Program-made: the position numbers and the translations under genes
Source of the DNA: Salipiger pallidus
Lineage (GTDB): Bacteria; Pseudomonadota; Alphaproteobacteria; Rhodobacterales; Rhodobacteraceae
DNA length: 64,000 bases
Direction of reading: 5' to 3'
NCBI RefSeq assembly: GCF_014643635.1
Contig: NZ_BMJV01000006.1
Location: 333,463-397,462, forward strand
Notes under the pieces: generated by a model
Seen by the model: only the letters and a program-made list of their open reading frames with translations
Told to the model about the DNA's origin: nothing
Databases searched by the model: none
Shown here: positions 8,094 to 41,870 of the stretch, piece after piece
How positions within the stretch are numbered: the stretch's first letter is position 1
Layout: each line of letters opens with the position of its first letter

Positions 8094-10676
8094 ATGCCCA
8101 AGCAGGCGCGCCCCGAACAGGCCAGCCCCACCAGTTCCGGTCCCACCAGTTCCGAGGGTGATATTCTTGCTCCGGTGAAATGGCCCCTGCGCCTGACCCT
8201 GTGGGGTATGACCGCCGAACGCATCACCCGCGCCTTCTGGCCGCTGTGGTCCATCGTCATCGCCGCGCTGGCGGCGCTGATGCTGGGACTTCAGGACCTC
8301 GTCATGGTGGAATGGGTCTGGGGTACCGGTGCCGTGGCGCTGGCGGGGGCCGGCTGGGCCGCGTGGCGCGGCATCAGGATGATGCGCCTGCCGACGCGGG
8401 CGCAGGCGATCTCTCGCCTCGATGGGTCGATGACCGGCAACCCGATCCAGGCCGCGCTGGACGATCAGGCCATCGGTGCCGCCGACATGGGCTCGCAGGC
8501 CGTGTGGGACGCGCACCAATCACGCATGCGCAAGCGGCTTGCGGCGGCGAAAGCCGTCCAGCCCGACCTCAGGGTCGCCCGCGCCGATCCCTTTGCCCTG
8601 CGCTACGTCGCGCTGCTGGCGCTCGCGGCGGCGCTGATCTTCGGCTCGGTCCTGCGGGTGTCGTCGGTCACCGCCATGGGCCCGTCGGGCAGCGATCTGG
8701 CCTCGGGCCCCGCGTGGGAAGGCTGGATGGAGCCGCCGGGCTACACCCGCATGCCGGCCGTCTATCTCAATGACATCACCGCCCCCGGCATCGACGTGCC
8801 CGAGGGCGCGCAGATCACCCTGCGCATGTATGGCGAGGTCGGCGCGCTCAGCGTCGAGGAAACCGTCTCGGGGCGTGATCCGAACCCGGATGTGGCGCAG
8901 GACACGGCGCAGGAATTCGCCATCGCACGGTCCGGAAGGCTTGCCATCGACGGGCCCGGCGGCCGTGCGTGGGACATCTCGGTCACCGCCGACACGCCGC
9001 CCACCATCCGCCGCGAGGGGGAAATCGAATCAAGCTACGAGGGCGATGCCCAGATCCCCTTCGCTGCCACCGACGATTACGGCGTGGTGGCGGGCACCGC
9101 CCGGATCGAGCTGGCGCTTGACGAGGTGAACCGCTCCTACCTTCTGGCGGCTGAGCCCGAGGCGCGCGAGGCGATCGAGGTGCAGCTGCCCATGCCGATC
9201 GCAGGCGACCGTACCGAATTCACCGAAGCGCTGGTCGAGAATTTCTCCCAACATGCGTGGGCCAATCTGCCCGTCACGATCTCCATGCGCGTGGAGGACG
9301 AGGCAGGGCAGGTTGGCGAAACCGCCCCCGAGGTCATCACCCTTCCGGGGCGCAGATTCTTTGATCCTCTGGCCGCTGCGGTGATCGAGCAGCGCCGCGC
9401 CTTGCTCTGGACCCGTGATAACGCGCCCGACGTGGCGCAGATCCTGCGGGCGATCAGCTACCTGCCCGACGATGCCTTCCGCTCGGCGGTGCCTTACCTG
9501 AAGCTGCGCCACATCCTGCGGCAGGTGGAGGGTGACTTCACCACTGAGGCGCGGGACGAGGTGGTTCAGGCCATGTGGGATCTTGCCATCGAGCTGGAAG
9601 AGGGCGATCTGGCCTCCGCTCAGGAAAGGCTGCAACGGGCGCAGGAGCGTCTCGAAGAGGCGATGAAGAATGGCGCCTCCGAACAGGAGATTGCCGAGCT
9701 GATGCAGGAGCTGCGCGAAGCGACGGACGACTACCTCCGCCAGCTGTCGCGGCAGGCCCAGCAGCAGGGCGACCAGAACCCCGAGATGTCGCAGTCTCAG
9801 GACATGGTCGAGATGAGCCAGAACGACCTTCAAGGCATGATGGACCGCATTCAGGAGCTCATGGAGGAAGGCCGCATGGACGAGGCCGCCGAAGCGCTGC
9901 GTCAGCTTCAGGAAATGATGGAGAACATGCAGGTCACCCAGGGCCAGCAGGGCCAGTCGTCCGGCGAGCAGGCCATGGAAGGCCTTGGTGAGACGCTGCG
10001 CGAACAGCAGGGTCTGTCGGACGAGGCGTTCCGCGAGCTGCAGGAGCAGTACAATCCCGGCCAGCAAGGGCAGCAGGGCCAACAGGGTATGCAAGGCCAG
10101 CAAGGTCAGGGTCAGCAGGGCCAACAGCAGGGACAGGGCGAGGATGGTCAGCAGGGTCAGGGGGGGCAACAGTCTCTCGAGGATAGCCTTGCCCAGCGGC
10201 AGCAGCAGCTGCGCAACGAGCTGAACCGCCAGAGCCAGAACCTTCCCGGTGCCGGCACCGAGGCCGGCGAGGCCGCGCGAGATCAGCTTGGCCGCGCCGG
10301 AGAGGCCATGGACGGTGCCGAAGAGGCGCTGCGTGACGGTGATCTTCCCGGTGCCATCGACCGGCAGAGCCAGGCCATGGAAGCGCTTCGCGAGGGCATG
10401 CGGTCTCTTGGCGAGGCGATGGCTCAGCAAGGCCAGCAGCAGGGCGAGGGCCAGCAAGGCCAGATGGAAGGCGGAGATCCGGGCCAGCAGCGCGACCCGC
10501 TGGGCCGCAACGCGGGGGCCAACGGTCAGCTTGGCAGCGATGAGAGCATGGTGCAGGACGAGGACGTCTACCGTCGCGCCCGAGAACTGCTGGACGAGAT
10601 CCGCCGCCGTTCCGGCGACGGCGAACGTCCCCAAGAGGAACTCGACTACCTCGAGCGACTCCTCGAACGGTTCTGA
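8094..10676 (+). CDS. TIGR02302-family membrane protein with Gln/Gly-rich region
   Basis: An 860-residue protein matching the alphaproteobacterial TIGR02302 (DUF4175-like) family. Two hydrophobic segments lie near residues 45-85 and a third near 165-185, followed by an extracytoplasmic beta-rich part. A helical Glu/Gln region (about 490-620) precedes a low-complexity tract near residues 640-690 built from GQQGQ and QGQQ units, and a second Gln-rich patch near 780. Length is normal for the family. It starts 53 bp after lysA behind CAGGAGACGC. Function is not established; anchored periplasmic coiled-coil architecture is inferred. Confidence 0.75.
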   Translation: MPKQARPEQASPTSSGPTSSEGDILAPVKWPLRLTLWGMTAERITRAFWPLWSIVIAALAALMLGLQDLVMVEWVWGTGAVALAGAGWAAWRGIRMMRLPTRAQAISRLDGSMTGNPIQAALDDQAIGAADMGSQAVWDAHQSRMRKRLAAAKAVQPDLRVARADPFALRYVALLALAAALIFGSVLRVSSVTAMGPSGSDLASGPAWEGWMEPPGYTRMPAVYLNDITAPGIDVPEGAQITLRMYGEVGALSVEETVSGRDPNPDVAQDTAQEFAIARSGRLAIDGPGGRAWDISVTADTPPTIRREGEIESSYEGDAQIPFAATDDYGVVAGTARIELALDEVNRSYLLAAEPEAREAIEVQLPMPIAGDRTEFTEALVENFSQHAWANLPVTISMRVEDEAGQVGETAPEVITLPGRRFFDPLAAAVIEQRRALLWTRDNAPDVAQILRAISYLPDDAFRSAVPYLKLRHILRQVEGDFTTEARDEVVQAMWDLAIELEEGDLASAQERLQRAQERLEEAMKNGASEQEIAELMQELREATDDYLRQLSRQAQQQGDQNPEMSQSQDMVEMSQNDLQGMMDRIQELMEEGRMDEAAEALRQLQEMMENMQVTQGQQGQSSGEQAMEGLGETLREQQGLSDEAFRELQEQYNPGQQGQQGQQGMQGQQGQGQQGQQQGQGEDGQQGQGGQQSLEDSLAQRQQQLRNELNRQSQNLPGAGTEAGEAARDQLGRAGEAMDGAEEALRDGDLPGAIDRQSQAMEALREGMRSLGEAMAQQGQQQGEGQQGQMEGGDPGQQRDPLGRNAGANGQLGSDESMVQDEDVYRRARELLDEIRRRSGDGERPQEELDYLERLLERF

Positions 10677-11072
10677 TGCGGCTCCGCATGTGCGGGGCGG
10701 CCCTCAGCAGATGTGGGTCGGGCGGGAAGCTTCAGGCTTTGGCTCCGCATGCGTGGGATGGCCTCGTGCGGCCTGGCCTTGGTTTGCTTCACCTCGCTGA
10801 CTGATGCAAAAGCGGCACGGGCTGACGCCTCTTGGCGTTTTCACGATAAAGGCGCTGGCGAAACGCGGCACCGGTCCGCGTTTTTCCGCTCGGAGCGGAG
10901 GCGTGGTTCGCACTGACGCTCGGAGCCTGGCATATGGCATTTGTCGTCTGACACCATTCGGCGCGTCCACGAGGAAAGCTGGTGCCGTCGTCCTGCGGCG
11001 CTCCGCGTATCGGCTGGTCAGTGTGGGTTCTGAGGTTCGATACCTGCTTGGCAGCTGTGATCTTGCATGTCC

Positions 11073-11272
11073 CGATGTTTCGATGTTTCGATGTTTCGAT
11101 GTTTCGATGTTTCGATGTTTCGATGTTTCGATGTTTCGATGTTTCGATGTTTCGATGTTTCGATGTTTCGATGTTTCGATGTTTCGATGTTTCGATGTTT
11201 CGATGTTTCGATGTTTCGATGTTTCGATGTTTCGATGTTTCGATGTTTCGATGTCTCGATGTCTCGATGTCC
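11073..11272. repeat. 8-bp tandem repeat CGATGTTT, 22 perfect copies plus 3 variants
   Basis: Positions 11073-11248 are 22 uninterrupted copies of CGATGTTT. Two copies of CGATGTCT and one of CGATGTCC follow, ending at 11272; GCATGTCC just before 11073 looks like another decayed unit. The unit is 37.5 percent G+C in a region well above 60 percent. Since 8 is not a multiple of 3, each plus frame reads the same octapeptide cycle (MFRCFDVS) and each minus frame reads HRNIETSK, with no stops. Degenerate units only at the edges suggest recent expansion by slippage in the core. Confidence 0.97.
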
Positions 11273-11344
11273 CAGTGTCCAGCCTCGCGCGGCATCCGTC
11301 CTCCGAATGCGCTCCGGATGCTATGCAGGATCACGGCCCACATC

Positions 11345-11396
11345 TCTGACATGAGTCAGCTATTGCTCTTGGTAGCCCTCTCTGACAAAAGTCAGA
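11345..11396. promoter_or_regulatory. Twin CTGAC-N4-GTCAG dyads, probable operator
   Basis: Two inverted repeats with identical arms, CTGAC-ATGA-GTCAG (11346-11359) and TCTGAC-AAAA-GTCAGA (11381-11396), have centres 36 bp apart. The second ends 20 bp before the start of the MarR-type gene at 11417. MarR regulators commonly bind such dyads and repress their own gene, so autoregulation is the likely role (inference). Confidence 0.6.
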
Positions 11397-11416
11397 AAAA
11401 TTGCGCCGGAGCCGTC

Positions 11417-12316
11417 ATGTCTAACACCTCATCTTCCGACCTGCTTAACAATGCCGTAGCCCGCACACGTCGGTTCCACCGCGCGGTGACCACCGAGGCC
11501 GGGGTGCTCGACGACAGCTTCCTTGGTCGTGGCCGACCGCTGGGACCGGCGCGGGTGCTCAACGCCATCGGACATGGCCGTCGCGACGTGACCGAGATCC
11601 GTGGTTATCTCGGGCTCGATTCCGGGCTGATGAGCCGCCTGCTGCGCGGTCTGGAGGATGAGGGCCTTGTCACCGTCAGCCCCGATCCGCAGGATGCCCG
11701 CCGTCGCCTTGCTGCGCTCACCACGAAAGGGGCGGAAGAGTTCGCCGCCTATGATGCGCTGTCCGACGATCAGGCGGCGCGGATCCTTGCCCGCTATCCC
11801 CGCCCCGAGACGCTTCTGGCAGCCATGGACATCGTTGCCACCGCCCTTGGAATCGAGCGCACCGAGATCATCGAGACCGACCCCCGCGATCCCCGTGCCG
11901 TCGCCTGCCTGAGCGCCTATTACGAAGAGCTGGGACAGCGGCTGAAGACTGGATTCGACGTGTCGCTGTCCGCCGATCCCGAGGCCACGGCCATGATGTC
12001 CCCGCGGGGGGCCTTCCTTGTGGCGATCAGCGACGGCATGCCCATTGGCTGTGTCGGGCTCAAGGGCACCGACAAGGGCTATGCCGAGGTCAAGCGCCTG
12101 TGGACCGCGCCCTCCGCCCGGGGGATGGGGCTGGCAAAGCGGCTGATGGCCGTGCTCGAGGACAGGGCGCGCGATCTTGGCATCGGGCTGCTCCGGCTCG
12201 ACAGCAACAGCGCGCTGCCCGAGGCCATCGCCATGTACCGCAGTGCCGGATGGACAGAAATCGACCGCTTCAACGATGATCCCTACCCGGACCACTTCTT
12301 CGAAAAGGCGCTTTAG
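11417..12316 (+). CDS. MarR-family regulator fused to GNAT acetyltransferase
   Basis: A 299-residue two-domain protein. Residues about 20-140 form a MarR-type winged helix (GPARVLNAIGHG, LGLDSGLMSRLLRGLEDEGLV recognition helix, then DARRRLAALTTKG wing). Residues about 150-299 form a GNAT domain with motif A KRLWTAPSARGMGLAKRLMAVLE and the terminal LRLDSNSALPEAIAMYRSAGW. It may sense a ligand or acetylate a small molecule while controlling transcription; the substrate is unknown. ATG 11417 is chosen because the MarR domain begins there; the frame continues open upstream only through the repeat array. The promoter region has the twin dyads. Confidence 0.85.
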   Translation: MSNTSSSDLLNNAVARTRRFHRAVTTEAGVLDDSFLGRGRPLGPARVLNAIGHGRRDVTEIRGYLGLDSGLMSRLLRGLEDEGLVTVSPDPQDARRRLAALTTKGAEEFAAYDALSDDQAARILARYPRPETLLAAMDIVATALGIERTEIIETDPRDPRAVACLSAYYEELGQRLKTGFDVSLSADPEATAMMSPRGAFLVAISDGMPIGCVGLKGTDKGYAEVKRLWTAPSARGMGLAKRLMAVLEDRARDLGIGLLRLDSNSALPEAIAMYRSAGWTEIDRFNDDPYPDHFFEKAL

Positions 12317-12496: not shown

Positions 12497-13684
12497 ATGG
12501 CCGCAGATGCGCCCATCACCCAGGACCTGGTGACCATTCCCCGCAAGCTGCCCGATGGCGGCAAGGTGAACCTCGTTGGGCTCACCCGCACCGCCATGCG
12601 CGACGCGCTCATTGCCATGGGCACGCCGGAAAAGCAGGCCAAGATGCGGGTGAACCAGCTGTGGCAGTGGATCTACCACTGGGGCGTGCGCGAGTTCTCG
12701 GCGATGACCAACCTCGCCAAGGACTACCGCGCCAAGCTCGAAGAGCATTTCGAGATCACGCTCCCCGAGATCGTGTCCAAGAACGTCTCGACCGACGGCA
12801 CCCGCAAGTATCTTGTCCGCATCGCCGGCGGCCACGAGGTCGAGGTGGTCTACATCCCTGAGACCGATCGCGGCACCCTGTGCATCTCGAGCCAGGTGGG
12901 CTGCACGCTGACCTGTTCGTTCTGCCACACCGGCACGCAGAAGCTGGTGCGCAACCTGACCGCCGGCGAGATCGTCGGGCAGGTGATGCTGGCGCGCGAT
13001 GACCTTGACGAATGGCCCGCCCCGGGCACCGGCACCGGCGACAAGGGCCCGCGCCTTCTGTCGAACATCGTGCTGATGGGCATGGGCGAGCCGCTCTACA
13101 ACTTCGACAACGTGCGTGATGCCATGAAGATCGTCATGGACGGCGAGGGCATCGCCCTGTCGCGCCGCCGGATCACGCTGTCGACCTCGGGTGTCGTGCC
13201 GGAAATCGCCAAATGTGCCGAGGAAATCGGCTGCCTGATGGCGGTGAGCTTCCACGCCACCACCGACGAGGTGCGCAACAAGCTGGTGCCGATCAACAAG
13301 CGCTGGAACATCGAAGAGCTGCTGAACGCCCTGCGCGAATACCCGCGCCTGTCGAACTCCGAGCGGATCACTTTTGAATATGTGATGCTCAAGGATGTGA
13401 ACGACACCGACGCCGATGCGCGCCGCCTCGTGAACCTAATCAAGGGCATCCCGGCCAAGATCAACCTGATCCCCTTCAATGAATGGCCCGGCGCGCCCTA
13501 CGAGCGGTCGGACTGGGAGCGGATCGAGCGTTTTGCCGACATCGTGCACAAGGCCGGTTACGCCTCGCCCATCCGTACCCCGCGCGGCGAGGACATCATG
13601 GCCGCCTGCGGTCAGCTTAAGTCCGCGACCGAGCGCGCCCGCAAGTCCCGCGCCCAGATCGCGGCGGAAACCGGCACCGCCTGA
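12497..13684 (+). CDS. rlmN: Dual-specificity 23S rRNA/tRNA adenine-C2 methyltransferase
   Basis: A 395-residue radical-SAM methyltransferase that methylates A2503 of 23S rRNA and A37 of some tRNAs. The [4Fe-4S] cluster motif is [12 protein letters not shown] (CxxxCxxC). Further conserved parts are [25 protein letters not shown] and the C-terminal [16 protein letters not shown], which includes the mechanistic cysteine. ATG 12497 is preferred over the open upstream extension because it begins a normal N-terminus. It is a single-gene unit. Confidence 0.93.

Positions 13685-41812: not shown

Positions 41813-41870
<58 letters not shown>

What the first reader, a model, noticed from the sequence alone, without database searches (positions are those of the whole stretch)
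11073..11272. 22-copy perfect 8-bp tandem repeat, open in all six frames, upstream of a regulator gene
CGATGTTT is repeated 22 times without a mismatch, with decayed units only at the ends. Such non-triplet arrays change length by replication slippage. Each copy gained or lost shifts the reading frame and moves upstream elements by 8 bp relative to the MarR-GNAT promoter, 145 bp downstream. The frame of the MarR-GNAT gene is open from GTG 10982 straight through the array, so an alternative fusion translation is possible in one of three lengths. A phase-variable switch for a regulator would be new to this group as far as I know.
Basis: partly seen in the sequence, partly recalled or inferred. 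Interest (0 to 1): 0.7.

Follow-up and report, generated by a model that had tools for sequence, protein, structure and literature searches.

The report
One of many species-specific slippage arrays
A bacterium of the Salipiger group carries 22 exact copies of an eight-letter DNA word in the gap before a regulator gene; it is one of eleven long exact repeat arrays seen in the 28% of the genome that was sampled, against none in samples of four sister species, so it likely grew by copying slips and is probably not a dedicated on/off switch for that gene.

Summary
The array is real: CGATGTTT x22 exactly (11073-11248), then three decayed units to 11272, open in all frames. The switch model for the MarR-GNAT gene is not supported. 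(1) The gene's predicted operator, CTGACN4GTCAG, lies between array and gene; the palindrome stands before 69 of 83 homologs (0 of 325 control windows), none with an array of 28 bp or more in the 400 bp upstream. (2) Three congeners keep the gene order, but their gap before the gene is 58-67 bp instead of 740 bp; the array sits in about 670 bp not found there. (3) At each copy number tested (16-28) start codons inside the array stay in frame with the gene, so slippage cannot close that frame. (4) The array is not alone: 1.264 Mb of this genome (28%) holds 11 perfect arrays of 5-9-bp units of 40 bp or more, up to (TTGGAGCC)66.6, with different motifs, 10 of 11 called intergenic; 1.195 Mb from four congeners holds none. 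MutS and PolA are full length. Best reading: a species-specific crop of long simple repeats of the known 5-11-nt class, made by replication slippage. An effect on expression stays possible, with precedent in Haemophilus hmw, but is untested.

The parts
11073..11248 (.). 22 perfect copies of CGATGTTT
11249..11272 (.). three decayed edge units CGATGTCT, CGATGTCT, CGATGTCC
10677..11345 (.). about 670 bp of DNA absent from the gap between the same two genes in three congeners; holds the array. Its left part (10674-11072) is single copy and without plasmid or phage match; its 73-bp right part was not searched on its own
11346..11359 (.). distal predicted MarR-GNAT operator CTGACATGAGTCAG
11382..11395 (.). 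proximal predicted MarR-GNAT operator CTGACAAAAGTCAG
11417..12316 (+). MarR-GNAT gene (Pfam MarR_2, MarR, Acetyltransf_1)
10982..11416 (+). open N-terminal extension of the MarR-GNAT frame through the array; judged an accident of the stop-free unit
8094..10676 (+). upstream gene, DUF4175 family
12497..13684 (+). downstream gene, rlmN-type radical SAM methyltransferase
41813..41870 (.). second long intergenic array of the window, (GCCTGA)x9.67

Best explanation
This is a 22-copy perfect CGATGTTT array in a roughly 670-bp intergenic stretch not found in the congeners examined, one of eleven perfect 5-9-bp arrays of at least 40 bp in the sampled 28% of this genome (none in samples of four congeners), and it likely arose, and likely still changes length, by replication slippage without being a dedicated switch of the MarR-GNAT gene. 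Shown: the array, its absence from the three congeners that have the gene, the crop of arrays in the sample, the position of the conserved palindrome between array and gene, and full-length MutS and PolA. Inferred: short tandem seeds are no commoner here than in congeners, but in this lineage some seeds expanded far, mostly where no gene is broken; slippage homogenised the core and left variant units at the edge; MarR-GNAT likely controls itself from the downstream palindromes. Why this species expands arrays is not known.
For: Array perfect in the core with decayed edge units. Among sampled genomes the motif in tandem is in this one alone: 1 of 394 family genomes (three copies), 1 of 20 genus genomes (two copies), 1 of 398 phylum genomes (21 bases; the sets overlap). 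Three congeners with the gene in the same order have a gap of 58, 67 and 65 bp and no array. 11 arrays of 40 bp or more in 1.264 Mb of own genome versus 0 in 1.195 Mb of four congeners and 0 in 0.818 Mb from 78 loci of other genera; without the window 9 versus 0 in congeners, p = 0.002; at 28 bp or more 16 versus 0, p = 1.6e-5. Rates of 2-copy and 3-copy tandems no higher than in congeners; arrays of 4 or more copies, units 4-12: own 15, of which 11 have 6 or more, congeners 0. 10 of 11 called intergenic; neighbours include rplT, purK, an M17 aminopeptidase, a Clp ATPase, a Trypsin/PDZ protease, queC and a DEAD-box helicase. rplT locus: array of 28 bp or more in own, in 0 of 19 congeners. Palindrome in 69 of 83 homologs versus 0 of 325 control windows. 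Extended frame present at 13 of 13 copy numbers. MutS and PolA full length in own.
Against: No second genome of the species, so slippage or length change was not observed. The own sample covers three of 23 contigs and was not drawn at random; gene calls are heuristic (the caller missed MarR-GNAT itself; the L261 array had no coding-like ORF nearer than 2 kb on one side and the end of the stretch on the other). Long perfect arrays are not wholly confined to this genome: L134 of another genus of the family has (GCCGCAT)x4.57, 32 bp, and L046 a 31-bp 12-mer array. At rplT the gene downstream of the array differs in all 19 congeners, so only one side of that locus compares. The origin of the non-array part of the 670 bp is unexplained. 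An effect on expression cannot be excluded: arrays of 7 and 8 bp at 69-213 bp upstream of hmw genes in Haemophilus influenzae are reported or proposed to modulate expression (PMC2651432, passages).
Confidence: 0.75

Rival explanations
1. Transcriptional contingency locus: array length tunes MarR-GNAT transcription, for example by changing read-through from upstream or the spacing or AT content upstream of the promoter, and slippage makes the population heterogeneous.
For: 73 bases separate the array from the first predicted operator; array region AT-rich (GC 0.395) in a GC-rich genome (0.646 in the sample); both strands fold better than shuffles, z -2.8 and -5.1; heptamer and octamer arrays upstream of hmw genes are a precedent (PMC2651432, passages).
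Against: Gene, palindrome and gene order are kept without any array in three congeners, one of them with one mismatch in the palindrome. Other arrays in the genome lie on either side of varied, mostly housekeeping-type genes. No promoter was recognised.
Confidence: 0.15
2. Translational phase variation: array length decides whether a longer MarR-GNAT protein with an N-terminal octapeptide-repeat domain is made.
For: GTG 10982 is in frame through the array and has a weak AGGA.
Against: Start codons inside the array are in frame at every length from 16 to 28. The conserved protein begins at or near ATG 11417, with GGAG upstream. No such fused protein among 4 hits from 701 candidates. Median upstream open extension in 83 homologs is 3 codons; 3 of 83 have 60 or more. 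Third-position GC of the 90-bp extension before the array is lower than in neighbouring genes.
Confidence: 0.03
3. Assembly artefact: the copy number or the array itself is wrong.
For: The genome is a 23-contig draft and no reads were available.
Against: The contig continues through it with decayed edge units; arrays of very different motif and length up to 533 bp are assembled elsewhere in the genome, which short reads would hardly give (inference). Copy number may still be off by some units.
Confidence: 0.04

Closest known systems
Long simple sequence repeats (LSSR) of the 5-11-nt class (Mrazek et al. 2007, not seen itself; known here through the introductions of PMC4692102 and PMC4679880)
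   Same: Units of 5-9 bp, heptamers commonest, mostly intergenic, large GC-rich genome, scattered occurrence between relatives, slippage proposed.
   Different: The ten richest genomes as retold there include no alphaproteobacterium; here arrays are absent from samples of four members of the same genus; motifs differ from locus to locus.
Brucella HOOF-Print octamers (PMC1183211, passages)
   Same: Alphaproteobacterium, 8-bp unit, tandem arrays whose length can be read by PCR.
   Different: There one octamer recurs at at least eight loci and serves to tell strains apart; here this octamer array occurs once and variation is untested.
Haemophilus influenzae hmw1A/hmw2A upstream heptamer and octamer arrays (PMC2651432, passages)
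   Same: Array 69-213 bp upstream of a gene; units of 7 or 8 bp; copy numbers 12-38.
   Different: There strains differ in copy number, and modulation of expression was reported for the heptamers; here the gene is a regulator and neither was shown.
Single-motif intergenic heptamers: GGGAATC in Xanthomonas and GGGGA(C/T)T in Nostoc (PMC4692102, introduction and passages), TAACTGA in Beggiatoaceae (PMC4679880, introduction and passages)
   Same: Many intergenic short tandem arrays in one genome.
   Different: One motif at many loci there; a different motif at each sampled locus here.

Membership tests
LSSR-rich genome, 5-11-nt class | Many perfect arrays with units of 5-11 nt, longer than expected | tested here: met
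   11 arrays of 40 bp or more in 1.264 Mb, 0 in 1.195 Mb of congeners; the original random-model cut-off was not applied
LSSR-rich genome, 5-11-nt class | Heptamers the commonest unit | tested here: met
   5 of 11 arrays of 40 bp or more; 6 of 18 of 28 bp or more
LSSR-rich genome, 5-11-nt class | Non-triplet units mostly outside coding sequence | tested here: met
   10 of 11 called intergenic by a codon-score heuristic; the eleventh, L266:5647, lies at the start of a called ORF without a Pfam hit
LSSR-rich genome, 5-11-nt class | Genome over 4 Mb and over 60% GC (a tendency, not a rule) | tested here: met
   4.44 Mb; 64.6% GC in the sample
SSR phase-variable (contingency) locus | Length change breaks or restores a reading frame | tested here: not met
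SSR phase-variable (contingency) locus | Array lies in a promoter so that length alters transcription | tested here: inconclusive
   Array is upstream of the predicted operators; no promoter recognised
SSR phase-variable (contingency) locus | Copy number differs between cells or strains | not testable with these tools
   No second genome of the species was held
HOOF-Print-like octamer family | The same octamer array at several loci | tested here: not met
   One locus in the whole genome
MarR-family self-regulated gene | Conserved palindrome just upstream of the gene | tested here: met
   69 of 83 homologs, 0 of 325 control windows
MarR-family self-regulated gene | Protein binds the palindrome | not testable with these tools
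   Needs a binding assay

The most novel reading that the evidence does not exclude
This species has recently acquired a genome-wide change in DNA replication or repair that lets almost any 5-9-bp tandem seed run away into a long perfect array (an estimated 39 arrays of 40 bp or more, 95% interval 19-69), with MutS and PolA intact, while sister species have few or none: a natural, unit-size-specific expansion mutator.
Probability: 0.3. Interest if true: 0.65.

Novelty: new member of a known kind. Interest (0 to 1): 0.4.

Why it matters
A set of long repeats present in one species and absent from samples of its sisters is a clean natural comparison for a standing question: what makes 5-9-bp repeats expand in some bacterial genomes and not in others. 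If they vary, the arrays would also be ready-made strain markers. For the regulator, the conserved palindrome gives a testable operator for a widespread MarR-GNAT family.

Tried and rejected
Octamer as a recurring element: CGATGTTT x3 in viral contigs 0, reversed control 1; its octapeptide turns up in unrelated proteins (4 and 19 hits), such as a ComF-like protein, a dephospho-CoA kinase end and Plasmodium vivax proteins, without flanks shared with this locus as read by eye. Insert as a mobile element: left part single copy, no plasmid or phage match; a 12-bp inverted pair, 11 of 12, near its ends, no flanking duplication seen by eye, left as chance. RNA element: only one match, a microRNA family far below its gathering score. 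Shared core CCTGA in 4 of 11 array units: random-draw p = 0.04, too weak; CCTGA and CCTGAG are not markedly overrepresented in the sample. Structure: repeated 4-bp hairpins, -22.9 and -29.4 kcal/mol, 0 of 200 shuffles as good on either strand; it may help slippage, but was not pursued. Literature searches: repeat letters 0 papers; Salipiger with tandem repeat 0; Rhodobacteraceae with repeats and phase variation, 61 papers of which the ten listed hold no occurrence of Rhodobacteraceae; MarR-GNAT search gave nothing used (listing); two searches gave nothing further used (listings; PMC11868660 passages). First operator count (67 of 83) had two loci in the wrong orientation and was redone; rows for whole-genome loci on the minus strand are not used. 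Dropped rows: L011 and L012 (same records as L041 and L042), L015, L016, L027 (partial or distant matches); five N runs of G019. Below the 28-bp cut the congener samples hold five arrays of 20-27 bp. Imperfect arrays with units of 18-30 bp occur in own and congeners alike.

Full report
Observation. CGATGTTT is repeated 22 times without mismatch at 11073-11248, followed by CGATGTCT, CGATGTCT and CGATGTCC. It is the strongest tandem array of the window, and three copies in a row occur nowhere else in the genome. The array has no stop in any frame.

Where it lies. Upstream is a DUF4175 gene ending at 10676; downstream are a MarR-GNAT gene (11417-12316) and rlmN. The MarR-GNAT gene is in 4 of 20 genus genomes at E 1e-60. 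In the three others it sits between the same neighbours, but the gap after DUF4175 is 58, 67 and 65 bp to the start codon, not 740 bp. The extra 670 bp or so, array included, has no counterpart there; its left part (399 bp searched) is single copy in own genome and matches three congeners over about 27 bp only, and 396 bp of it match no plasmid or phage record. The 73-bp right part was not searched on its own.

The regulator does not need the array. Just upstream of close MarR-GNAT homologs stands the palindrome CTGACN4GTCAG: exact in 69 of 83 homologs, with one mismatch in 5 more, and exact in 0 of 325 control windows of the same loci, of which 5 come within one mismatch. The homologs come from many alphaproteobacterial genera. 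The window has two copies, 11346-11359 and 11382-11395, both between array and gene, 57 and 21 nt before the ATG. None of the 83 homologs has a perfect array of 28 bp or more in the 400 bp upstream. That the palindrome is the protein's own operator is inference from position and conservation. Two further exact matches of the palindrome lie elsewhere in the sampled part of the genome (L217, L274) and were not followed.

No translational switch. For 16 to 28 copies the MarR-GNAT frame stays open into the array, and 6 to 10 ATG codons inside it are in frame at each of the 13 lengths. Gain or loss of a unit only changes which upstream start joins. The median open extension upstream of the aligned start of the 83 homologs is 3 codons, with 3 of 83 at 60 or more. 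No fused protein was among the 4 hits of a database search with the extension.

The array is one of many. I read 1.264 Mb of this genome (28%; window plus 60 stretches of 20 kb on three contigs) and 1.195 Mb of four congeners (G017, G005, G019, G018) without N. Own: 18 perfect arrays of 28 bp or more and 11 of 40 bp or more: (CGATGTTT)22.75, (GCCTGA)9.67, (TCAGG)9, (GGCTTGC)16.3, (CTGGTCT)12.1, (CCCTGAG)15.4, (CAGCCTCAC)20.1, (TTGGAGCC)66.6, (CCGAGCTG)7.6, (GCGCTTG)6, (ACCTGAG)12. Congeners: none of either length, five of 20-27 bp. Leaving out the window, 9 versus 0 at 40 bp (p = 0.002) and 16 versus 0 at 28 bp (p = 1.6e-5). 78 loci of other genera, 0.818 Mb, hold 1 of 28 bp or more and none of 40; one 16-kb locus of another genus of the family (L134) holds a 32-bp heptamer array. 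Extrapolated to the whole genome: 39 arrays of 40 bp or more, 95% interval 19-69, if the sampled contigs are typical. Rates of 2- and 3-copy tandems are no higher in own than in congeners; arrays of 4 or more copies number 15 in own, 11 of them with 6 or more, and 0 in congeners. So births look ordinary and expansion looks special.

Position of the crop. Ten of the eleven lie outside ORFs called by a codon-score heuristic. Neighbours: rplT and a LolA-like gene; purK and an SseB-like gene (array 3 bp after its stop); an M17 aminopeptidase and a carbonic anhydrase; a Clp-type ATPase and an ion channel; a Trypsin/PDZ protease; a zinc-binding dehydrogenase and queC; a DEAD-box helicase and a TOBE-domain gene; a GATase-like gene and a chemoreceptor; an rpsI gene 2 kb away. 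This is not the list of surface genes usual for contingency loci (general knowledge). At rplT an array of 28 bp or more is in own and in 0 of 19 congeners, but the gene downstream differs in all 19, so only one side of that locus compares.

Cause. MutS and PolA match their families over the whole model without stops in this genome; so their loss is not the cause. Small changes in them or in other factors were not tested.

Known kinds. Two papers, seen in their introductions and in passages, describe the class: long simple repeats with 5-11-nt units, more frequent in large GC-rich genomes, heptamers commonest, scattered between relatives, slippage proposed (PMC4692102; PMC4679880). This genome fits. 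Brucella HOOF-Prints use one octamer at at least eight loci (PMC1183211, passages), which this is not. Haemophilus hmw genes show that arrays of 7 bp, and perhaps 8 bp, some 70-210 bp upstream can matter for expression (PMC2651432, passages), so an effect in cis is possible here, but nothing in the sequence asks for one.

Verdict. The array is likely a slippage product and one of a species-specific crop of long repeats, which is the more interesting fact.

Noticed in passing
window 41813-41870: Second long perfect array, (GCCTGA)x9.67, intergenic between an ion-channel-like gene and a Clp-type ATPase gene.
   Followed up: partly
L266:1793-2325: (TTGGAGCC)x66.6, a 533-bp perfect octamer array 16 bp after a zinc-binding dehydrogenase ORF, in the same genome.
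   Followed up: partly
L210:12522-12643: Two different heptamer arrays, (CTGGTCT)x12.1 and (CTTCTCC)x4.9, stand three bases apart downstream of rplT; no array of 28 bp or more near rplT in 19 congeners, whose downstream gene differs.
   Followed up: partly
window 11346-11395 and upstream of homologs in L041-L120: Conserved CTGACN4GTCAG palindrome before MarR-GNAT genes across Alphaproteobacteria, a predicted operator (69 of 83).
   Followed up: yes
gap before MarR-GNAT in G017 and S. aestuarii (L131, L132): There the palindrome sits in the centre of a longer inverted repeat, seen by eye, that could also act as a terminator of the upstream gene.
   Followed up: no
window 41813, L184:5645-5689, L211:6833-6940, L273:17835-17918: Four arrays of unit length 5, 6 or 7 share the core CCTGA; random-draw p = 0.04.
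   Followed up: partly
L217:6404 and L274:14125: Two more exact CTGACN4GTCAG palindromes in the sampled part of the genome, possible further targets or chance.
   Followed up: no
G007:C3:278271-280885: The mutS1 match in this congener comes in two pieces with different open frames, unlike the single match in the other 19 genomes.
   Followed up: no
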